From positions 5,530,001 through 5,594,000 of the forward strand of contig NZ_CP071091.1 of NCBI RefSeq assembly GCF_017301635.1: DNA of 64,000 bases, read 5' to 3'. A model generated the notes under the pieces. It did no database searches, was not told the origin of the DNA, and was given only the letters and a program-made list of their open reading frames with translations. Shown here piece after piece: positions 42,217 to 52,453 of this stretch. Position 1 is the first letter of the stretch. Each line of letters starts with the position of its first letter. Origin of the DNA: Myxococcus landrumus. Lineage in GTDB: Bacteria > Myxococcota > Myxococcia > Myxococcales > Myxococcaceae. The position numbers and the translations under genes were made by a program.

Positions 42217-43122
42217 CTACGGCGTGCCGTCGCCGTCGCCGCCGCGGCGCTTGAACAGCTTGCCCAGCGCGACCACCAGGACCGCGAGGCCCGCGAAGAT
42301 GGCCTTCTTGCCCGCCACCAGCACCGCGAGCAGGCCCTTGAAGAGCCCCGCCTTCGCGGCCACCTTGCCCGCCACCAGACCGCCGATGCCGTACGCCGCC
42401 ACGCGGCCCGTGCTGGGGTCGAAGTCCTCGTAGCGGTGGCCCGGCATGAAGTGCGTGAAGCCCAGCACCTGCTGCATGTCCTTCTCCACCTGGGGCAGCG
42501 CCACCATGCTGGAGACGGCGTTGAGCACCAGCACGCCCTCCTTGCCCAGCACCCGGACGTTGTAGTTCAGCGTGTGCTCCTTCGACTCACCGAAGGCCAG
42601 CTCCTGCGCCCAGTACAGCTTGCGCGAGCTCGCGTCGTAGTGCGGCTTCGCGGCCCAGCCCACCAGGTCCACCGTCCCGTAACCGGCGCTCGTGCGCTCC
42701 TTGTTCTCCTCGCGGGTGCCCTCCTGCATGTCCTTGAGCAGGTCCGCGTAGTCGATGCCCGCCGCGTCCTCATCCTCCACGTGGCCGTCGTCGTCATACG
42801 AGATGACGACGCCCCATCCCGCGGGCGAGTCCACCGCCACATCCGACGGCACCAGCATGCCCAGCGTCGTGGAGCCCGGGGGATTGCCCCAGACCTCCAC
42901 CAGGACCTTCTCCGCCTCCTCGGGCGAGAGGTAGCCGAAGTTGGCGGGCACCACCATCTTCGCCATGCCGCCGCCCAGCACCACCTCGCCCGTCTTCGGG
43001 TGCAGCTCGGGCAGCGACGGGAGCGCCGCCTCCTCCTGCTCAGCTCCCTGCTCGGGCGCCTGGGCCCACGCGTTCATCGCCACCAACGACAACACCACGA
43101 ACAACCATCGCCCACGCTGCAT
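42217..43122 (-). CDS. DUF2167 family exported membrane protein
   Basis: The 301-residue protein has a signal peptide (about 1-21), a periplasmic DUF2167-type domain (VPANFGYLSPEEAEKVL, WGVVISYDDDGHV, HYDASSRKLYWAQEL, LNYNVRVLGKEGVLVLN) and one or two C-terminal membrane helices followed by KRRGG. The family is widespread in Proteobacteria with unknown function, and its members are anchored in the inner membrane. ATG 43122 has a strong GGAGGGG site 8 bases upstream. It ends at the shared terminator. Confidence 0.85.
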   Translation of the reverse strand: MQRGRWLFVVLSLVAMNAWAQAPEQGAEQEEAALPSLPELHPKTGEVVLGGGMAKMVVPANFGYLSPEEAEKVLVEVWGNPPGSTTLGMLVPSDVAVDSPAGWGVVISYDDDGHVEDEDAAGIDYADLLKDMQEGTREENKERTSAGYGTVDLVGWAAKPHYDASSRKLYWAQELAFGESKEHTLNYNVRVLGKEGVLVLNAVSSMVALPQVEKDMQQVLGFTHFMPGHRYEDFDPSTGRVAAYGIGGLVAGKVAAKAGLFKGLLAVLVAGKKAIFAGLAVLVVALGKLFKRRGGDGDGTP

Positions 43123-43301
43123 GTAGTTTCCCCTCCAGGGATTTTCAGACACGGAACGCCGAGGGGGACGAGACACGCCACAGGGACTGACGGCACGGCG
43201 TGCGCCGAAGCGCACCGCGAGGCCCCCCGGATTCCGAAGGCGCGGGAACCTAGTGGTGTGCGGGAGCGCGCGTCAAATCAGCGGGCGGCGGGGCGCGAAA
43301 C

Positions 43302-43904: not shown

Positions 43905-44144
43905 CTTGTTCACCAAGGAGAAGCGCCGGCGCGAAGGCAGGGCGCCGCGCGGCAACGCTACTTAATAACAAGAGACTCTCGCGCTGCACGGCGCTTCGCG
44001 GAACGAAGGCGGGGCCACGCTCGCCCTCGACAGGACGGACGGTGCCGCCTCCAAGGTCACTGCCGCGTTCGCGCGCGTCTTCGCTCCCCACTCCCGCCAG
44101 ATGGACCCCAGGCCCTCCGCGCCCCCCGCTGGAGGAAGTGCCCA

Positions 44145-44882
44145 TCAGGAGGACGTCTCATCCATCAAGGAATCATCCTCCGCCTCCGTGACTTCTTTTT
44201 CGTTTCGATTCTTCTCGTTTCGCTGTGACGGGAATGTCCTCTGGTTCTCACCCCATGCTTGGGGGTTGTAGTGCCATGAGAGCTGTTGGGCGAGGCGCGA
44301 GGGATGAAAGGAGACCATCCAATTCAACCCAACAGCCTCCGCGAACTTCGTCGCCTCCCTGACTTGTGCCTTGAACGCGGAGCCACACGCAAAAAGCACC
44401 GAAGCCCCCTGGTGCCTTCCCGCCACACGCCGCAACTCTTCGGCAAGAAAATCACTGTTCAACGGCCACGCATTGCGCACGCGTTCGTCTTTGACGGTGG
44501 TCATGAGCCGAGCCCCCTGCGCGTAGCAATCCGCTGTAACCCAGTCTGCCTGGCAACGAACCAGGTTGGTCACATAGATTCCATTCTCCTCCAGTTGGCG
44601 ATACTCGAACTCTTCCTCCCCTCCGCCCTGCGAATCTCGCCACCTGTTGAGAATCTTCACCCCTGTGTCTTCCCAAGCTGGAGAGCCATTCTTCACTTCG
44701 GCAAAGGAAGGGGACTCACAAACCACAACCAGCCGCACCGGATGGGCTGACGTCGCGTGATAGTTCGTGTTGACCGGCCCTATCCTTGCGTTGGCAGGCA
44801 GGCCCCACATGGCGCGACAGTTCATCGCGAGCTCTTCAGCCTTCACCGCATCGACTTCGTAGAAACGCCGGCCGGCCGCCAT
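44145..44882 (-). CDS. Putative uracil-DNA-glycosylase-superfamily protein, low GC
   Basis: The 245-residue cytoplasmic protein is not firmly assigned. Segments in the right order recall the UDG superfamily: RLVVVCESPSFAE where active-site motif I (GEAPG-like) would lie, NGIYVTNLVRCQ (compare the TN-x-VKCRP strand), ASVLFACGSAFKAQ, and VSFHPSRLA resembling the HPSxL motif II. The C-terminal 30 residues are charged and repetitive. Base composition drops well below that of its neighbours (only about half G+C near its 3-prime end), and it has flanking gaps of 240 and 132 bases. Both suggest recent acquisition. Activity is uncertain because motif I is diverged. Confidence 0.5.
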   Translation of the reverse strand: MAAGRRFYEVDAVKAEELAMNCRAMWGLPANARIGPVNTNYHATSAHPVRLVVVCESPSFAEVKNGSPAWEDTGVKILNRWRDSQGGGEEEFEYRQLEENGIYVTNLVRCQADWVTADCYAQGARLMTTVKDERVRNAWPLNSDFLAEELRRVAGRHQGASVLFACGSAFKAQVREATKFAEAVGLNWMVSFHPSRLAQQLSWHYNPQAWGENQRTFPSQRNEKNRNEKEVTEAEDDSLMDETSS

Positions 44883-45014
44883 GGCTCTCCACTCCTCGTC
44901 GGGGGTCTTCCATTACCTGCGACAGGCACCTGACCCATCGTGGGTCATGCACCTGCAAGTCGACGGGGCTGCATGTCCCAACCGCGAAGGGAGCACGCAG
45001 CCCTCGGTCTCGAC

Positions 45015-46151
45015 TCAGCGTCCGCTACAGAAGTGCGCGATGGCGCGGGCCAGGATGGCCTCGCAGCGCACCAGGTCTTCGACGGGCACGTACTCACCCG
45101 TCTGGTGCGCCACGCGGATGTCGCCGGGCCCGAACACCACCGCCTCCGCGCCCAGCTCCGTCATCTGCGGAGCCTCGGTACCGAACGGCACCGTCGTGGA
45201 CGCATTGCCGCTGGCCTCGGCCAGGAAGCGCACCACCTCCGCGTCCTCACGCGTATTCACGCCCCGGTCCGTCCGCAGCACGCGGATGTGCGCCTCATAG
45301 GCGGGCTCGTCGCGCACCAGCTCCTGCCGGATGGACTCCAGAAGCTCCGCCACCCGCTGCGTCGACTGGCCCGGAATCGGCCGCCACTCCACCGTGAACC
45401 GGCACGAGCCCGGCAGGATGTTCTTCGCCTTGCCCCCCTGGATGACGCCCACGTTCACCGTGGTGAACGGCGGCTGGAAGCCCTCGTCCCGCTCCTCGCG
45501 CAGCACCGTCGTCGCGAGCTGCTCCAGCCTTTGGAGGAATCGCCCCGCGCGGAAGATGGCGGACGCGCCCGTCTCCGGATACGCGCTGTGCCCCTCCTTG
45601 CCCAGCACCTCCACCTCCGCCAGGCAGTAGCCCTTGTTCGCGCGCACGGGCGTGAGCTTCGTGGGCTCGCCGACGATGGCGTGCCGCGCACGGCCCAGGC
45701 CCGCGGCCACCAGCTTCTTGGCCCCCACCAGCCCCACTTCCTCGTCCGCGGTGAGCACCACCATCAGCGGAGCCTGGAGCCGCTCGGCGCGCAGGGCGGC
45801 GTGCAGCGCGCAGGCGATGAAGCCCTTCGTGTCACACGCGCCACGCCCGTAGAGCTTGCCGTCCTTCTCCGTCAGCTTCAGCGCGTCCGTCCACGCCGCG
45901 TCGAAGGGCACGCAGTCGGAGTGCCCCACCAGCGCGAGCGCCGCGCGCCCGGTGCCGCCCTTCACGGCCACCAGGTTCACCTTCTCCTTCCCCGCGTCAT
46001 CGGTGTACCGCTGGCGCTCCGCGCTGAAGCCCGCGGCCTCCAGTCGCGCCTGCGCATAGTCGATGAGCGGGGCATTGGGTCGCGAGGACGTGGTGTCCAT
46101 CGCCACCAGCTCCGTCAGGGTGGCCCGCAACGCGGGCAGCGTGTCGCTCAT
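45015..46151 (-). CDS. argE: M20-family acetylornithine deacetylase
   Basis: The 378-residue metallopeptidase-fold hydrolase has zinc ligands and catalytic residues in GHSDCVP (His77), GACDTKG (Asp107) and ADEEVG (catalytic Glu137, Glu138). The middle dimerisation domain is present. It should remove acetyl from N2-acetylornithine in arginine synthesis. Related M20 enzymes (succinyl-diaminopimelate desuccinylase) are the main alternative, but the GRGACDTKG-type motif and overall similarity favour ArgE. ATG 46151 has a GGAGG site 8 bases upstream. It lies 69 bases downstream of hutF. Confidence 0.85.
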   Translation of the reverse strand: MSDTLPALRATLTELVAMDTTSSRPNAPLIDYAQARLEAAGFSAERQRYTDDAGKEKVNLVAVKGGTGRAALALVGHSDCVPFDAAWTDALKLTEKDGKLYGRGACDTKGFIACALHAALRAERLQAPLMVVLTADEEVGLVGAKKLVAAGLGRARHAIVGEPTKLTPVRANKGYCLAEVEVLGKEGHSAYPETGASAIFRAGRFLQRLEQLATTVLREERDEGFQPPFTTVNVGVIQGGKAKNILPGSCRFTVEWRPIPGQSTQRVAELLESIRQELVRDEPAYEAHIRVLRTDRGVNTREDAEVVRFLAEASGNASTTVPFGTEAPQMTELGAEAVVFGPGDIRVAHQTGEYVPVEDLVRCEAILARAIAHFCSGR

Positions 46152-46220
46152 GGGACAGCCTCCAGTGGCCGCGTCATGCCACCGCCCGGCTCCCCGCGCC
46201 AGCCCCCTGTCCCTACCCCT

Positions 46221-47603
46221 TCACGGGTACAACGCACGCGCGAGCGTCTGGAACGCACGCCCGCTCTCCTCCGCGAGCGGATGGCGCCCGTCTCGCACCA
46301 CCAACCGTCCATCCACCGCCACCTCGCGCACCGCCGACTTCTCCGCGCCCAGGACAATGGAGGCCAACAGCGACGCCGGGCTCGCGCCCACCAGCGACGG
46401 ATGCCCCACGTCCACCGTGAAGAAGTCCGCGGGCGCCCCCGGCTCGAGCGTCCCCGTGGACAGCCCCAGGCTGCGAGCCCCCTCCACGGTGGCCATGCCG
46501 AAGAGCCGCGCCGCCAGCCCCGACACCTCACCACCGCCCGGGTCCAGCACCGCGCGCCGCAGCCGCGACAGCCGCAAGTGCCCCTCGAGCTGACGCGCCT
46601 CGTCCAGCAGGTCCACGTGCGCCTGGCTGTCCGAACCCAGGCTGATGCCCGCGCCCGCCTTCACCAGCGCGTCCGCCGGGACGATGCCATCCCCCAGGTT
46701 CCGCTCGGTGGAGGGGCACGCGCACACCGTCGCACGGCCGGTGCCCAGCATGGACACCTCCTCGGCCGTCAGGTGGACGCCATGCACGGCGGTGAAGTCC
46801 GGACGCAGGAGCCCCAGGTCCGACAGCAGCTCCACCGGGCGCCGGCCGTGCTCCGCCAGGCACGCCTCGATTTCCTTGGGCTGCTCCGCCACGTGCATGT
46901 GCACGGGGAAGCCGCGCACGCCGGCGATGACCTTCAGCCACTCCTTCGTCACCGCGCGGACACTGTGCGGTGCCAGGCCCACGCTCACCGCCGAGTCGCC
47001 TCGAACCTCGCGGGCCAGCGACTCCACGGTGGCGAGGAACGTGTCCACGTCCGGGTCGATGAAGCGGCGCTGACGCGGATTCGGCGCCACCTGGAAGCCC
47101 GCGCGCGCATAGCCCACGCGCAACAAGCAGATGCGCAGGCCCGCGTCGCGCGCGGCCCGGATGACCGCGTGGGCCAACACGTTCCGGTCCGCGTATGGCG
47201 TGCCGTCCTGCTGATGGTGCACGTAGTGGAACTCGCCCACCGTGGTGATGCCCGCCAGGGCCATCTCCACGAAGACCTGCCGTGAGGCGACGTAGACGTC
47301 CTCGGGCGCCAGGGACTCGGCGGCGCGGTACATGGCCTCGCGCCAGCTCCAGAAGTCATCTGCCTCTCGCCCGGAGACCACGTACTCCGTGCGTCCGCGG
47401 ATGAGCCGCTGGAAGGCATGCGAGTGGCCGTTGACCATGCCCGGCAAGAGCACTCGGCCCGGCAGGCGCACGACGCTCGCTCCGGCGGGCACGGACGACG
47501 CCGGGAGGACCCGGCCATCGGCGCCCACGGCCAGGGGGCGCCCTTCGAGGAGCCGGCCTCCCTCGTACAAGAAGTCCGGCTGGTAGACAGTGGTGTCGCT
47601 CAC
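46221..47603 (-). CDS. hutF: Formimidoylglutamate deiminase
   Basis: The 460-residue amidohydrolase has metal-site motifs HSH (60-62, VNGHSHAFQR), HVAEQP, and SDSQAHVDLLDEARQLE. This pattern is characteristic of HutF, which converts N-formimino-L-glutamate to N-formyl-L-glutamate and ammonia in histidine degradation. Other hut genes are not in the window. The GTG start lacks a strong ribosome site. It may be co-transcribed with argE (69-base gap). A guanine/cytosine-deaminase-like role is less likely. Confidence 0.85.
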   Translation of the reverse strand: MSDTTVYQPDFLYEGGRLLEGRPLAVGADGRVLPASSVPAGASVVRLPGRVLLPGMVNGHSHAFQRLIRGRTEYVVSGREADDFWSWREAMYRAAESLAPEDVYVASRQVFVEMALAGITTVGEFHYVHHQQDGTPYADRNVLAHAVIRAARDAGLRICLLRVGYARAGFQVAPNPRQRRFIDPDVDTFLATVESLAREVRGDSAVSVGLAPHSVRAVTKEWLKVIAGVRGFPVHMHVAEQPKEIEACLAEHGRRPVELLSDLGLLRPDFTAVHGVHLTAEEVSMLGTGRATVCACPSTERNLGDGIVPADALVKAGAGISLGSDSQAHVDLLDEARQLEGHLRLSRLRRAVLDPGGGEVSGLAARLFGMATVEGARSLGLSTGTLEPGAPADFFTVDVGHPSLVGASPASLLASIVLGAEKSAVREVAVDGRLVVRDGRHPLAEESGRAFQTLARALYP

Positions 47604-47670
47604 GCGCGGCAGCGTACGTCAGCGGGCCGAGTCTCGCAGCAGCCTCGACACAGCCCGCCTGCCCCCGCTG

Positions 47671-49152
47671 TCACCGCGTCGACGCCAGCTTCTTCTCCCC
47701 GTCCCGCCCGGGGTGCACCGAGTTGTCGTTCGAGCCAGGACGCCCCAGCCCTCGCTGGACCGCCGGCAAGGACGCGTTCACCGGGCCTACGTAGAAGACC
47801 CCCTGGTAGCCCTCCGGGTTCGTCGAATCCCACAGGTGCACGAAGTACCGGTCGCCGTTGTTGCGCCCCCTCGTGTCCCGCACTCCGCAGTCCAGCTTGT
47901 CCTGAACGCCCTTGCTGTCCACCGAGCAGATCCACGCCGTGCCGCTGTCATACGCCATGTCCAGCGCCACCACGTCGTCCAGCTTCTCCTTCACCAGGTA
48001 CCCCATGGGCTTGCGCTGCTCATCCCACGGCAGCCCCTTCTTCGTCCGCGAGTGGATGTTGCCCGAGAGAATCATGTGGAAGCGCTTGGGCGACGACTCC
48101 ACCTGGTGCACCACCGTCGCCGCCATCGCATCCTCGCGCTCCTGCCCGTTGGCCTTCGGGTGGTCGAACACGAAGACCTCCACGTCCAGCCCCATCGCGC
48201 GCAGCAGCCGCAGTTGCTCCAGCAGGTTCGCCATGCCCTCGCTGCCACGGCCATCCGGATACGGGCTGCGCCAGAATGGAGACTCCATCAGCTTCAGCCA
48301 GTCGTGCTCCGTCCCCTGGCTCTCCAGGAACGCATCCACGCGCGTCTGGTTCTCCAGCGGCAGCTCCAACCCCACCGTCACGGGGACACCCGCCACCACG
48401 GCCTGACACGTGGACTGGGCCACGAAGCGCGGAACCTCGCGAGTGCCGTGCAGTTCGCCCAGCAGCAGCACCGCTCCCGGCTTCGCCTGCTTGCCCAGGC
48501 CCAGGATGGGCAGACCACACTCCACCGCGAACTGCGACGGAGCACTCGTCGCCGACGGAGCGCGGGCCACCATCACCGGCTTCGGCGCGTTCTCCTCCTT
48601 CGCCAGCCGGGGAGACACGTCGCGGAACACCCGCCACTCCATCACCATGTCTCGCTGAGACTGGCCCGAACCCGCGGCGACGGCGACATCTCCACGCGGG
48701 GCACTGAGGCTGGCCGCGACGTCCTCGGGAGAGCCCACTCCGAACCCATCCCCTTCACCTTCACCGCTCCTGCGAGCCGTCTGGCCCCAGTCCAGCTCGC
48801 TGCCACCAACGGACAGCGTCCTGTTGGTGCTCTTGGTGATGCGGAAGATCTGCAGCTTGCTCGACGTCGGCGTCTCCCGGCGACCCACCACCATGTACCG
48901 GTGGAAGAAGCCCGCGATGCGCGAGCCGCCGAACTCCTGCCGCCACTCCGTCTCCAGCACCATGCTGCCGCGGTCCTCGCGAAACGACAGCTCGTTGCGG
49001 GTGAAGAACTCCCGGATCTCCGGCCACACCGCCTCGAGCGGCTGGTCGTAGACGGCCTCCCGGTCCGGAATGTCCAGGTCGCTGCGCCAGGTCGCGCAGC
49101 CCGTCATCACGAATGCACCCGCCAGAACCACGAGGACGACCCACCGCATCAT
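47671..49152 (-). CDS. Lipoprotein with ChaN/TIKI-like domain, copy A
   Basis: The 493-residue lipoprotein has a lipobox MTGC (Cys19). An N-terminal domain of about 90 residues (REAVYDQPLEAVWPEIREFF..., then SSKLQIFRITKS) resembles BamC-like lipoprotein folds. After a variable linker comes a C-terminal domain with GELHG (232-236) and GNIHS (364-368), each a G-x-x-H pair as in ChaN/TIKI-superfamily haem-binding or metalloprotease-like proteins. ATG 49152 follows GGAGGTG by 5 bases. It is about 85 % identical to copy B just upstream, with near-identical DNA over the C-terminal half. Function unknown. Confidence 0.75.
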   Translation of the reverse strand: MMRWVVLVVLAGAFVMTGCATWRSDLDIPDREAVYDQPLEAVWPEIREFFTRNELSFREDRGSMVLETEWRQEFGGSRIAGFFHRYMVVGRRETPTSSKLQIFRITKSTNRTLSVGGSELDWGQTARRSGEGEGDGFGVGSPEDVAASLSAPRGDVAVAAGSGQSQRDMVMEWRVFRDVSPRLAKEENAPKPVMVARAPSATSAPSQFAVECGLPILGLGKQAKPGAVLLLGELHGTREVPRFVAQSTCQAVVAGVPVTVGLELPLENQTRVDAFLESQGTEHDWLKLMESPFWRSPYPDGRGSEGMANLLEQLRLLRAMGLDVEVFVFDHPKANGQEREDAMAATVVHQVESSPKRFHMILSGNIHSRTKKGLPWDEQRKPMGYLVKEKLDDVVALDMAYDSGTAWICSVDSKGVQDKLDCGVRDTRGRNNGDRYFVHLWDSTNPEGYQGVFYVGPVNASLPAVQRGLGRPGSNDNSVHPGRDGEKKLASTR

Positions 49153-49236
49153 GACACCTCCAAGAGACTCATCGCAGGAGGCCAGAACGAAGAGAAACAC
49201 TGGCCATATCGCCTCGCGGCCCTGGCCGCCGTGCGC

Positions 49237-50703
49237 CTACCGCACCGAGGCCATCCTCCGCCCCTCGTCCCGCGCGGGATGCACCGAGTTGTCATTGGCT
49301 CCAGGCCGTCCCAGCCCCCGCTGCACCGCGGGCTCCGAGGCCTTCACCGGCCCCACGTAGAAGACCCCATGGTAGCCCTCCGCGTTCGCCGAATCCCAGA
49401 GGTGCACGAAGTACCGCTCGCCGTTGTTCCGGCCCTTCGTATCCCGCACTCCGCAGTCCAGCTTGTCGCGAAGGCCCTTGCTGTCCACCGAGCAGATCCA
49501 CGCCGTGCCGCTGTCATACGCCATGTCCAGCGCCACCACGTCGTCCAGCTTCGCGCTGACCAGATACCCCATGGGCTTGCGCTGCTCATCCCACGGCAGC
49601 CCCTTCTTCGTCCGCGAGTGGATGTTGCCCGACAGCACCATGTGGAAGCGCGTGGGTGACGACTCCACCTGGTGCACCACCGTCGCCGCCATCGCGTCCT
49701 CGCGCGCCTGTCCGTTCGCCTTCGGGTGGTCGAACACGAAGACCTCCACGTCCAGCCCCTGCGAGCGCAACAGCCGCAACTGCTCCAGCAGGTTCGCCAT
49801 CGCCTCGCTGCCTCGGCCATCCGGATACGGGCTGCGCCAGAACGGCGACTCCATCAGCTTCAGCCAGTCATGCTCCGTCCCCTGGCTCTCCAGGAAGGCA
49901 TCCACGCGCGTCTGGTTCTCCAGCGGCAGCTCCAATCCCACCGTCACGGGGATGCCCGCCACGGTCGCCTGACACGCACCCTGGGCCACGAAGCGTGGCA
50001 CCTCCTCGGTGCCATGCAGCTCGCCCAGCAGCAGCACCGCTCCCGGCTTCGCCTGCTTGCCCAGGCCCAGGATGGGCAACCCGCACTCCATCGCCAGCTG
50101 CGACGGTGCGCTCGTCGCCGACGACGCCTTGGCCACCATCACCGGCTTCGGCGCGCTCTCCTCCTTCGCCAGCCGAGGAGACACGTCGCGGAACACCCGC
50201 CACTCCATCACCAGGTCCCGCTGCCCCTGGCCTGACTCCGCGAAGAAGGAGTTCTCTCCGCGCGGAGCCGCGAGGACCTCTTCCCAGTCCTCGGGGCTGG
50301 TGGGGTTATCCCCCGCGCCTCGACGGGCCGTCTGCCCCCAGTCCAGCTCCTTGCCGTTGTTCGACAACGCCTTGTTCAGGCTCTTGGTGATGCGGAAGAT
50401 CTGCAGCTTGCTCGACGTCGGTGTCTCCCGCCGCCCCACCACCATGTACCGGTGGAAGAAGCCCGCGATTTTCGAGCCGCCGAACTCCTGCCGCCACTCC
50501 GTCTCCAGCACCCGGCTGCCCTGGTCCTCACGGAATGACAGGTCGTTGCGAGTGAAGAACCCTCGGACCTCGGGCCACATCTCCTCGAGGGGCCGGTCAT
50601 AGACGGCTTCCCGGTCCGGAACATCCAGGTCGCTGCGCAGCGTCGCACAGCCCATCAGCCCCAACACCGAAACGAGTGTCGCGACGATTCCCCATCGCAT
50701 CAT
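49237..50703 (-). CDS. Lipoprotein with ChaN/TIKI-like domain, copy B
   Basis: The 488-residue paralogue of the downstream copy has the same order: signal peptide with lipobox MGC (Cys19), BamC-like N-domain, variable linker, and a C-terminal domain carrying GELHGT and GNIHSR. The linker (around 110-160) and extreme N-terminus diverge most, whereas the C-terminal catalytic-like region is almost unchanged. This suggests duplication with continued selection or gene conversion. The 84-base gap to copy A suggests co-transcription. It could process or bind a cell-surface substrate at the outer membrane. Confidence 0.75.
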   Translation of the reverse strand: MMRWGIVATLVSVLGLMGCATLRSDLDVPDREAVYDRPLEEMWPEVRGFFTRNDLSFREDQGSRVLETEWRQEFGGSKIAGFFHRYMVVGRRETPTSSKLQIFRITKSLNKALSNNGKELDWGQTARRGAGDNPTSPEDWEEVLAAPRGENSFFAESGQGQRDLVMEWRVFRDVSPRLAKEESAPKPVMVAKASSATSAPSQLAMECGLPILGLGKQAKPGAVLLLGELHGTEEVPRFVAQGACQATVAGIPVTVGLELPLENQTRVDAFLESQGTEHDWLKLMESPFWRSPYPDGRGSEAMANLLEQLRLLRSQGLDVEVFVFDHPKANGQAREDAMAATVVHQVESSPTRFHMVLSGNIHSRTKKGLPWDEQRKPMGYLVSAKLDDVVALDMAYDSGTAWICSVDSKGLRDKLDCGVRDTKGRNNGERYFVHLWDSANAEGYHGVFYVGPVKASEPAVQRGLGRPGANDNSVHPARDEGRRMASVR

Positions 50704-50773
50704 TCAGCCTCCAGGCAACCCTTGGTCAATGCGGCTAGAACGACGGGGCTACCTGGATATATCTGCGCGCGCG

Positions 50774-51259
50774 TCAGGCCTGGGCTTCGGAGCCCTCGCC
50801 GACGGAGACCTGCTCCTTCTCCCAGGGGCGGGTCCGAACCGCCTCGCGTATCCACAGGATGTGGCGCCGCTCGTCCTCGCGGTGGCGCTCGATGAGGCCC
50901 CGGACATCCGGACTCCAGTCGAAGCGCAGCGCCACGTCATAGGCCCGGTTGGAGAACTCCTCGTTGCCCATCATGGCCACCAGCGCCGCCTCGGTGCCCA
51001 TCATGCAAGACATCGCGGTCAGCCCCTTCATCGCCGCGCCCTTCAGGTCCGGCCGCAGCTCCAGCGGCACTCCGCCGAAGAGGTGGATGAAGGCATTGAG
51101 CTCCCGCACGTGGCGCAGATGGTCGGCACGAAACTCGCCCAACCGCTCTCGGACCAACGGCTCCGGGATGCGAGAGAGCGCCGCGTCGTAGGCCCCCACC
51201 GCGTCCGCGTCGAGCTGCGCCAGACTGCGCAGCCGTGCCACCTCGGACTTCTCGGCCAT
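50774..51259 (-). CDS. Ferritin-like four-helix protein (DUF2383-like)
   Basis: The 161-residue all-helical protein has carboxylate/histidine pairs spaced as in ferritin-like folds (EFRADHLRHV near residue 43 and RHREDERRHI near residue 125). It resembles the DUF2383/ferritin-like family found in stress and spore-associated contexts. Such proteins may bind iron or a di-metal site. ATG 51259 has a GGAGGAAG site. It is 70 bases upstream of copy B of the lipoprotein pair and divergent from the polymerase-domain gene. Metal binding is inferred, not shown. Confidence 0.7.
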   Translation of the reverse strand: MAEKSEVARLRSLAQLDADAVGAYDAALSRIPEPLVRERLGEFRADHLRHVRELNAFIHLFGGVPLELRPDLKGAAMKGLTAMSCMMGTEAALVAMMGNEEFSNRAYDVALRFDWSPDVRGLIERHREDERRHILWIREAVRTRPWEKEQVSVGEGSEAQA

Positions 51260-51418
51260 GTCGACTTCCTCCACGCCAGGGACGCATGCAATGTGAGAAG
51301 CCTCCCGCCGAAGTCCAACCCGCCCCGTGAGGCCCTGGACCGGCCGCCCTTCCGACGGGCGAGCGAACAAGACCTCGCTCCCTCGGGCATGCCCTCGCGC
51401 TCACCGCATGACATTGCA

Positions 51419-52453
51419 ATGGCTTCACGGGATGCCAACCGTTGGCCCGTGAAACGCCCCGACCCACGACTCCACGCCGACCGCCGCGAGCGGGCCCCGC
51501 GCCGTGCTACCGAGCCCGCAACCCACTCAGGCGAGCGGCGCGCGCCCCGGGCCCAGGCCGCGCGCAGGGCGGCCCCTTCGTCGCGGGAGGAGTCCGTCGC
51601 GCAGGCAGGGCGCGTGAAGCTGACGCACGCGGACCGCGTCCTCTTCCCCGGGAGCGGGCTGACGAAGGCGGATGTCTTCGCGTACTACCGCGAGGTGGCG
51701 CCGCTGCTCGTCCCCATCCTCGAGGACAGGCCCATCGCCGTGCAGCAGTGGCCCGCGGGAATCGAGGCGCCCGGCTTCTTCCGCCACGCGCTGTCGGGCA
51801 TGCCGTCATGGCTCCCCTCGCTGAGCGTGCGCCACGTGGACAAGACGCTGCGGCATGTGAATGTGACAGGCGAAGAGCCCCTGCTCTGGCTCGCCAACCA
51901 GTCCGCGCTCACGCTCCACATGTGGCTGAGCCGAGCCCCCAGGCTCTCGCAGCCGGACTTCCTCGCCATGGACCTGGACCCCGGCGAAGGAGGCTGGCCG
52001 GACGTCGTGGCGGCGGCGCTCGCGCTGCGCGAGCTGCTGGAGCAGCAGGGCCTGGAGGGCTACCCCAAGACCTCCGGCAAGCGAGGGATGCATGTCCTGG
52101 TGCCGCTGGCTCCGGGACACACCTATGCCCAGGTCCAGGCACACGCGAACGCCCTGGCCCAGGAGCTCGAGCGCCGACTGGGAACACGCGCCACCACCCT
52201 CCGCGGGGTGCGCGCGCGCCACGGGCGGCTCTACCTGGACGCGGGGCAGAACGCGCGGGGCAAGACAGTGGTCGCGCCCTACTCCCTTCGAGCCCGCGAG
52301 GCGGCGCCCTTCTCGGCGCCCCTGCGATGGCGTGAGGTGAGTGAGAAGCTGGACCCCTCGCGCTTCAACCTCCGCACCCTGCGCGAGCGCCTGGACTCCG
52401 TGGGAGACCTGTTCGCCCCCGCACTGGAAAACACACAGCGGCTACCAGGTTGA
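51419..52453 (+). CDS. Stand-alone LigD-type polymerase/primase domain
   Basis: The protein has about 344 residues. After a basic, low-complexity N-terminus of about 70 residues comes a complete LigD polymerase domain (AEP superfamily): KLTHADRVLFPGSGLTK, WPAGIEAPGFF, the catalytic DxD in AMDLDPGEGG (Asp185, Asp187), KTSGKRGMHVLVPL and ARGKTVVAPYSLR. It would add nucleotides at broken ends in non-homologous end joining. No ligase, phosphoesterase or Ku gene lies nearby. The start is uncertain (ATG 51419, also ATG 51389, or GTG near the domain). Confidence 0.85.
   Translation: MASRDANRWPVKRPDPRLHADRRERAPRRATEPATHSGERRAPRAQAARRAAPSSREESVAQAGRVKLTHADRVLFPGSGLTKADVFAYYREVAPLLVPILEDRPIAVQQWPAGIEAPGFFRHALSGMPSWLPSLSVRHVDKTLRHVNVTGEEPLLWLANQSALTLHMWLSRAPRLSQPDFLAMDLDPGEGGWPDVVAAALALRELLEQQGLEGYPKTSGKRGMHVLVPLAPGHTYAQVQAHANALAQELERRLGTRATTLRGVRARHGRLYLDAGQNARGKTVVAPYSLRAREAAPFSAPLRWREVSEKLDPSRFNLRTLRERLDSVGDLFAPALENTQRLPG

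What the first reader, a model, noticed from the sequence alone, without database searches (positions are those of the whole stretch)
47671..50703. Tandem lipoproteins joining a BamC-like domain to a ChaN/TIKI-like domain
Two adjacent genes encode lipoproteins with the same unusual order: lipobox, BamC-like N-domain, variable linker, and a domain with paired G-x-x-H motifs (GELHG, GNIHS). I do not know this architecture as a described family. The C-terminal halves are nearly identical at DNA level while the linkers diverge, suggesting recent duplication and constraint on the catalytic-like part. An outer-membrane hydrolase or haem-handling pair is possible.
Basis: partly seen in the sequence, partly recalled or inferred. 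Interest (0 to 1): 0.72.

Follow-up and report, generated by a model that had tools for sequence, protein, structure and literature searches.

The report
BamC-like lipoproteins carrying an Ere/TIKI hydrolase
Myxococcus and its relatives carry side-by-side copies of a membrane-anchored protein that joins a piece resembling an outer-membrane assembly factor to a probable water-splitting enzyme domain related to erythromycin esterase and ChaN, a domain combination that I did not find described.

Summary
The finding is real and its two domain calls hold. A (49237-50703) and B (47671-49152) are tandem lipoproteins. A profile of 22 diverse N-domains against all PDB sequences returns 12 hits, all BamC (best E 0.0033). 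The C-domain folds like EreC, HopBA1, RRSP and ChaN (Z 10.3-15.3; next fold 8.1). All five EreC catalytic residues have aligned counterparts: E228, H230, E258, R334, H362. Of 131 distinct C-domains, 99 keep both His and both Glu; of the 32 without H230, 29 also lack E258, so a second paralogue class is degenerate. I read A and B as outer-membrane, metal-independent hydrolases of an ester or amide; the substrate is unknown. ChaN, a haem binder, shows most of the same motif, so haem is not excluded. Corrections: the duplication predates the split of three species, and C-half similarity reflects constraint plus conversion-like homogenisation; the variable segment lies inside the BamC-like domain; the neighbouring DUF2383-HutF-ArgE cluster exists without these genes elsewhere. 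Of 69 matching genomes among 195 of the phylum, 67 are in the window's family.

The parts
49237..50703 (-). lipoprotein A, 488 aa (BamC-like N-domain + Ere/ChaN/TIKI C-domain)
   Evidence: ORF; family searches; models
50650..50703 (-). A: signal peptide, residues 1-18; lipobox LMGC, C19 lipidated (predicted), Ala at +2, Asp at +7
   Evidence: sequence; C19 invariant in 40 of 40; CA in 38 of 40, CS and CT once each
50170..50616 (-). A: BamC-N-like helix-grip domain, residues 30-178, with variable insert at 116-160
49306..50085 (-). A: Ere/ChaN/TIKI-like domain, residues 207-466
50011..50025 (-). A: GELHG 227-231 (E228, H230 aligned with EreC E47, H50)
49930..49932 (-). A: E258 (aligned with EreC E78; +28 from the His in both)
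49702..49704 (-). A: R334 (aligned with EreC R261)
49615..49629 (-). A: GNIHS 359-363 (H362 aligned with EreC H289)
47671..49152 (-). lipoprotein B, 493 aa, same architecture, 83% identical to A
48604..49065 (-). B: BamC-N-like domain with longer variable insert
47740..48519 (-). B: Ere/ChaN/TIKI-like domain (GELHG 48445-48459, GNIHS 48049-48063)
50774..51259 (-). upstream neighbour: DUF2383 (PF09537) protein, 70 nt before A; same strand
46221..47603 (-). downstream neighbour: HutF formimidoylglutamate deiminase, 67 nt after B
   Evidence: TIGR02022 587.7 bits, cutoff 413.05
45015..46151 (-). next neighbour: ArgE acetylornithine deacetylase, 69 nt after HutF
   Evidence: TIGR01892 520.7 bits, cutoff 297.7

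Best explanation
A and B are exported lipoproteins, most likely on the periplasmic face of the outer membrane. Their BamC-N-like helix-grip domain sits near the lipid anchor as a docking or substrate-presenting module. Their C-terminal domain is a metal-independent hydrolase of the Ere/TIKI type. By homology with EreC, H230, held by E228, would deprotonate a water positioned by E258 and H362; the hydroxide would attack the carbonyl of an ester or amide, and R334 would steady the transition state. Shown here: both domain homologies, presence and conservation of all five residues, and loss of H230 and usually E258 in a sister paralogue class. Inferred: export and outer-membrane location, catalysis and its chemistry. 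Unknown: the substrate and what the N-domain binds. The two copies are an old pair under purifying selection, and their catalytic halves have partly been homogenised.
For: C-domain: PF04187 is over its cut-off when the C-half of A is scanned alone (28.3 vs 27.7 bits). The fold search of the C-domain model puts 13 entries of the Ere/ChaN/RRSP/PMT/HopBA1 group on top at Z 10.3-15.3, next unrelated 8.1. HHalign of 95 C-domain rows: ChaN E 5.3e-6 (prob 86), Ere E 1.5e-4 (prob 51), the Ere alignment pairing GEL-HGT with GEATHGT, the Glu, RED..MA with RDT.MA and GNIH with HNSH; for scale, ChaN against Ere gives E 4.5e-6 and the family N-domain against ChaN E 0.34 (E-values for one comparison). The PDB alignment of EreC puts E47, H50, E78, R261 and H289 at those positions (residue roles from passages of PMC7979712). 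The same 2His/2Glu set is essential in RRSP in vitro (passages of PMC6254334). The His-to-Glu spacing is +28 in EreC, RRSP and A. Conservation: 99 of 131 distinct C-domains keep 2His/2Glu; 0 of 99 with H230 lack E258. N-domain: 12 of 12 PDB sequence hits are BamC; E. coli BamC scores 33.4 vs at most 22.7 in 50 shuffles; 2yh6 Z 8.4, rmsd 2.5, 89 aligned. Lipobox Cys in 40 of 40; Ala at +2 in 38 of 40 and Lys in none; Lys +2 was seen in 8 of 12 inner-membrane and Ala +7 in 7 of 10 extracellular-matrix lipoproteins of M. xanthus (passages of PMC3222651), and A and B have Asp at +7.
Against: ChaN shows GEKH, a Glu in its LEML segment and GSYH in the alignment, so the motif does not separate hydrolase from haem binder. 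Both models have low mean confidence (pLDDT 63.7 and 62.1), very low beyond about residue 395 and around both active-site loops; no distances could be measured. Foldseek alone mixes helicase chains into the top rows. Pfam gives the whole proteins scores just under cut-off (26.2-26.4 vs 27.7). KA1 and AMPK C-terminal folds tie with BamC in the structural second look (Z 7.9-8.0 vs 8.4). R334 is His in 4 of 73 tandem-type rows and in 5 of 99 motif-complete domains. Outer-membrane location is not shown: the cited survey found no conserved outer-membrane signal. 32 of 131 C-domains lack the first His (one of them by a gap), so the fold is kept in this family without the site.
Confidence: 0.6

Rival explanations
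1. ChaN-like haem/iron lipoprotein: the C-domain binds haem or another cofactor at the outer membrane and passes it on; the conserved residues shape the binding site rather than catalyse.
For: PF04187 (haem-binding uptake, Tiki superfamily, ChaN) is the Pfam family reached; the ChaN chain 2g5g is named a putative lipoprotein and its entry title reports cofacial haem binding; second motif GNIHSRT resembles GNGHART of myxobacterial ChaN; ChaN gives a better HHalign E-value than Ere, though over 65 columns only.
Against: Ere structures score above ChaN (Z about 15 vs 11.3). The first motif GELHGTxE resembles Ere GEATHGTxEF more than ChaN GERHDQPDHH. No haem-transport gene was recognised among the seven window neighbours scanned. 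13 of 31 relatives searched carry a separate near-full-length PF04187 match; the window's own genome has only a partial one.
Confidence: 0.15
2. Binding-only or scaffold proteins: the Ere/ChaN fold is used as a carbohydrate, peptide or protein binder throughout the family and A/B are merely its least diverged members.
For: 32 of 131 C-domains lack H230 and 29 of these also lack E258, yet 31 of the 32 keep H362, so the fold is used without the full site. PMT is reported to lack the 2His/2Glu motif (PMC6254334, passages).
Against: The tandem class keeps E228, H230, E258 and H362 together; 0 of 99 domains keep H230 without E258. NG86 dN/dS about 0.2 in the C-half.
Confidence: 0.15
3. BAM-associated factor: the N-domain is a divergent BamC that docks on the myxobacterial BAM complex, and the hydrolase acts on outer-membrane proteins or lipids being assembled.
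For: Only BamC chains are hit by the N-domain profile.
Against: BamC's contacts with BamD are made by its N-terminal sequence (PMC3359395, passage), whereas A has only about ten residues between the lipid Cys and the domain. The same paper's HMM survey found no BamC in 41 delta-proteobacterial genomes. Copy number at the locus varies from 1 to 3 and 29 of 59 family genomes had no match at E 1e-10, unlike a BAM core subunit.
Confidence: 0.07

Closest known systems
Erythromycin esterase (Ere) family, EreC 6xcq/6xcs and BcR135 3b55/2rad/2qgm (PF05139)
   Same: closest fold by Z (about 15); all five EreC catalytic residues have aligned counterparts
   Different: no PF05139 match for A or B; C-domain about 260 residues against about 400, GExH instead of GExxH; lipoprotein with an N-terminal BamC-like domain; substrate unknown
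ChaN (PF04187), 2g5g
   Same: Pfam family reached; named a putative lipoprotein; GExH and GxxH motifs
   Different: A and B lack the D-x-P-D-H-H stretch that follows GExH in the Myxococcus ChaN proteins seen; extra N-domain; EreC fits better in fold
RRSP, HopBA1, PMT C-terminal domain (TIKI superfamily)
   Same: fold (Z 10.3-12.7); RRSP shares 2His/2Glu
   Different: those are toxin or effector domains of pathogens; A and B are lipoproteins of a Myxococcus; PMT is reported to lack the motif
BamC N-terminal helix-grip domain (PF06804), 2yh6/2laf
   Same: sequence profile and fold
   Different: A far below the Pfam cut-off (11.3 vs 25 bits; best E 0.0051 among 22 members); the C-half is a hydrolase fold, not BamC's second helix-grip domain; outside beta/gamma-proteobacteria

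Membership tests
[quoted passage not shown]
   13 superfamily entries lead at Z 10.3-15.3, gap to 8.1; model pLDDT only 62
Ere/ChaN/TIKI superfamily (hydrolase branch) | 2His/2Glu active-site residues | tested here: met
   E228, H230, E258, H362 aligned with EreC E47, H50, E78, H289; invariant in 40 of 40
Ere/ChaN/TIKI superfamily (hydrolase branch) | catalytic residues face one pocket | tested here: inconclusive
   loops at 229-231 and 363-371 below pLDDT 50; no coordinates to measure
Ere/ChaN/TIKI superfamily (hydrolase branch) | hydrolysis of ester or peptide bond | not testable with these tools
   needs an enzyme assay
Erythromycin esterase family PF05139 | Pfam model match over cut-off | tested here: not met
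   A and B not hit at E<=10; 2 of 14 family members match at best E 0.0061
ChaN PF04187 | Pfam model match over cut-off | tested here: inconclusive
   whole A 26.2 and B 26.4 bits, C-half of A 28.3, cut-off 27.7
ChaN PF04187 | haem binding | not testable with these tools
   -
BamC (PF06804) | N-terminal helix-grip domain | tested here: met
   KA1 and AMPK folds tie in Z
BamC (PF06804) | Pfam match over cut-off | tested here: not met
   A 11.3 bits vs 25; B not hit
BamC (PF06804) | second helix-grip domain after the first | tested here: not met
   the C-half is an Ere/ChaN fold
BamC (PF06804) | association with BamD in the BAM complex | not testable with these tools
   -
Bacterial lipoprotein | signal peptide with lipobox Cys | tested here: met
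   Cys in 40 of 40; lipidation itself not tested

The most novel reading that the evidence does not exclude
A myxobacterial outer-membrane enzyme family in which a BamC-derived docking domain tethers an Ere-type hydrolase to the BAM complex or to nascent outer-membrane proteins, so that the tandem enzymes and their catalytically dead paralogues form an active/decoy system for remodelling the cell surface.
Probability: 0.06. Interest if true: 0.8.

Novelty: new variant of a known kind. Interest (0 to 1): 0.5.

Why it matters
A published HMM survey found no BamC-related sequence in delta-proteobacteria (PMC3359395, passages). Here a BamC-like domain appears in Myxococcaceae in two settings: alone in small lipoproteins, and fused to a probable hydrolase. 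The fusion family is multicopy and splits into members with a full Ere-type active site and members that lost H230 and usually E258, which makes the residue-function question testable by comparing natural paralogues. The TIKI fold is known from antibiotic esterases, a haem protein, Wnt proteases and bacterial effectors; an outer-membrane lipoprotein branch in a predatory bacterium would add a new setting.

Tried and rejected
Recent duplication: rejected. Functional link to histidine/arginine metabolism from the neighbours: weakened, because DUF2383-HutF-ArgE stands without a lipoprotein gene between them in 6 of 20 HutF loci from other genera (L145-L147, L149-L151) and HutF lies directly beside ArgE in four more (L148, L152, L156, L157; loci reach 1.5 kb either side). 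The genes were probably inserted into an existing cluster; shared transcription stays possible (67-84 nt gaps, one strand). The sigma-70/terminator scan of 44000-52000 gave 0 promoters (0.2 expected) and 1 terminator-like site (2.6 expected), uninformative. Phage or defence origin: no PHROGs or PADLOC match at E<=1 for A, B or one array paralogue. PDB sequence searches with A alone and with the 40-row full-length profile gave nothing at E<=10; only the N-domain profile and the folds worked. Universal myxobacterial BamC: the stand-alone lipoprotein L013 matched 64 of 193 genomes of the phylum at E<=1e-6, 63 in the window's family, and some of these matches lie in two-domain proteins, so not universal. 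Literature: ten searches listed no paper whose title or abstract start describes a BamC plus Ere/ChaN/TIKI fusion; I saw listings only, showing 15 of 26 papers, a small part of theirs. I read passages of four papers (PMC3222651, PMC6254334, PMC7979712, PMC3359395) and none whole. Most subscription journals are not held.
Full report
What is there. The window lies in a 10.37-Mb single-contig genome (G000). That it is a Myxococcus is inferred: the closest named loci are Myxococcus and Pyxidicoccus (72-76% and 70-71% for the best segment), and a contig of a genome classed in the same genus (G134:C48) has the length of the M. dinghuensis contig. Two minus-strand genes, A (49237-50703) and B (47671-49152), encode lipoproteins of 488 and 493 residues that are 83% identical. 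Both have a lipobox, an N-terminal part of about 150 residues with a variable segment, and a C-terminal part of about 260 residues with GELHG and GNIHS.

N-domain. Pfam alone is not enough: PF06804 (BamC) is reached at E 0.24 for the N-part of A, and in 6 of 22 diverse family members at a best E of 0.0051; A itself scores 11.3 bits against a cut-off of 25. Three further tests agree on BamC. The profile of the same 22 rows against all PDB chain sequences gives 12 hits at E up to 10, every one a BamC chain, best 0.0033. E. coli BamC scores 33.4 in HHalign against a maximum of 22.7 among 50 shuffles of itself. In the structural second look BamC-N is the best match of residues 31-177 (2yh6, Z 8.4, rmsd 2.5, 89 aligned), though KA1 and AMPK domains tie within one Z unit. 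The variable segment lies before the last helix of this domain: stand-alone lipoproteins L013 and L014 end with the same RD-initiated helix after their own variable segment.

C-domain. Scanned alone the C-half of A passes the ChaN cut-off (28.3 vs 27.7), while whole A and B fall just under it. A model of the C-domain finds EreC, BcR135, HopBA1, RRSP, ChaN and PMT at Z 10.3-15.3 and then a gap to 8.1; the full-length model gives the same group at Z 10.8-13.1. Foldseek alone is mixed: HopBA1, EreC, RRSP and ChaN rank high but helicase chains stand among them. Profile comparison aligns the C-domains with ChaN (E 5.3e-6, 65 columns around the first motif) and with Ere (E 1.5e-4, 188 columns through both motifs); ChaN against Ere gives E 4.5e-6 and the family N-domain against ChaN 0.34. 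Through the Ere alignment and the PDB alignment of EreC, EreC E47, H50, E78, R261 and H289 correspond to E228, H230, E258, R334 and H362. I derived the EreC numbers by subtracting an offset of 20 from the deposited chain, which puts all five named residues, and the N of the H289N mutant, where expected. The roles of these residues come from passages of PMC7979712, and the 2His/2Glu set of RRSP from passages of PMC6254334. ChaN shows GEKH, a Glu and GSYH in its own alignment, so these residues are shared with a protein reported to bind haem.

Conservation and loss. The tally used the family loci held at that point, leaving out the loci fetched for other families (L092-L136, L143-L162). Of 207 domains found, 202 were near full length and 131 remained after identical or contained sequences were removed. 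99 have E228, H230, E258 and H362 together; 32 lack H230 (one by a gap at a contig end), and 29 of those also lack E258; none keeps H230 without E258; H362 is kept in 130 of 131. The sample is enriched for relatives of A, the main query. The five-gene array at 5.768-5.776 Mb of the same genome reads ADPLG or SDPLG at the first motif and GS[VIT]H at the second. One relative (G008) has open frames of 961 and 946 aa with two such C-domains each; all four domains lack H230, and two of the four keep E258.

Duplication. In trees of 13 genes, B groups with the second gene of the pair in two other species (G056, G145) for both N and C (support 0.995 and 0.928), so the duplication predates their split. 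A groups with the first genes in the C tree (0.896); in the N tree its place is not resolved that way (it falls beside the G147 copies and outgroups, 0.842). In G147 the two copies group together. At informative sites between G000 and G056, the signal, N, insert and tail give 42 sites for orthology against 3 for within-genome likeness, while residues 161-466 give 21 against 23 (Fisher p 1.7e-6). For G145 the counts are 44:4 and 25:9 (p 0.034), and between G056 and G145 81:1 and 39:11 (p 9e-5). A few sites of the third pattern were left out, the regions were pooled after the counts were seen, and sites are linked, so the p values are rough. Gene conversion of the C-half is the simplest reading.

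Distribution and context. In the phylum search with the full-length profile 69 of 195 genomes match at E 1e-5, 67 of them in the window's family (some matches cover only one domain); in a family sample with protein A, 30 of 59 at E 1e-10. Of 16 loci from named records, 15 hold two or three copies and one (L037) a single copy; several loci are cut by contig ends. The order DUF2383-lipoproteins-HutF-ArgE is seen in 3 of these 16 (L034-L036); in 4 (L038-L041) one copy stands between HutF and ArgE; in 5 (L043, L044, L045, L047, L048) the lipoproteins follow HutF; 3 cut or partial loci (L042, L046, L049) show lipoproteins followed by ArgE; L037 shows none of these neighbours. DUF2383-HutF-ArgE without the lipoproteins occurs in other genera, so I draw no function from the neighbours.

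Verdict. I keep the hydrolase reading at 0.6. Domain homologies and conservation are shown; catalysis, location and substrate are inferred or unknown.

Noticed in passing
L009:3261-11070 (G000:C1 5768260-5776066): Five tandem paralogues of the same two-domain lipoprotein downstream of a glutamine-synthetase-like ORF (my reading of L009:274-1713), all with H230 and E258 lost.
   Followed up: partly
L013:2165-2731 and L014:2470-2976: Stand-alone BamC-N-like lipoproteins of 189 and 169 aa without the hydrolase domain; L013 matches 64 of 193 phylum genomes, some matches lying in two-domain proteins; no Pfam match at E<=0.01.
   Followed up: partly
L087, L089 (G008): Open frames of 946 and 961 aa with two Ere/ChaN-like domains in one chain, all four domains lacking H230.
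   Followed up: partly
L011:2822-4543: A paralogue without a lipobox that I can see, with both motif His lost and a long C-terminal extension.
   Followed up: no
L041 (BNCN01000002.1): A record titled Comamonas sp. KCTC 72670 carries this Myxococcus-type locus; its contig length equals that of G042:C2, classed in the window's genus, so the title is probably wrong.
   Followed up: no
window 50774-51259: DUF2383 protein directly upstream of A, kept beside HutF-ArgE even where the lipoproteins are absent.
   Followed up: partly
window 42217-43215: DUF2167 protein (PF09935, E 5.9e-86).
   Followed up: no
window 44145-44882: Weak uracil-DNA-glycosylase superfamily match just under Pfam cut-off (23.9 vs 24.3).
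   Followed up: no
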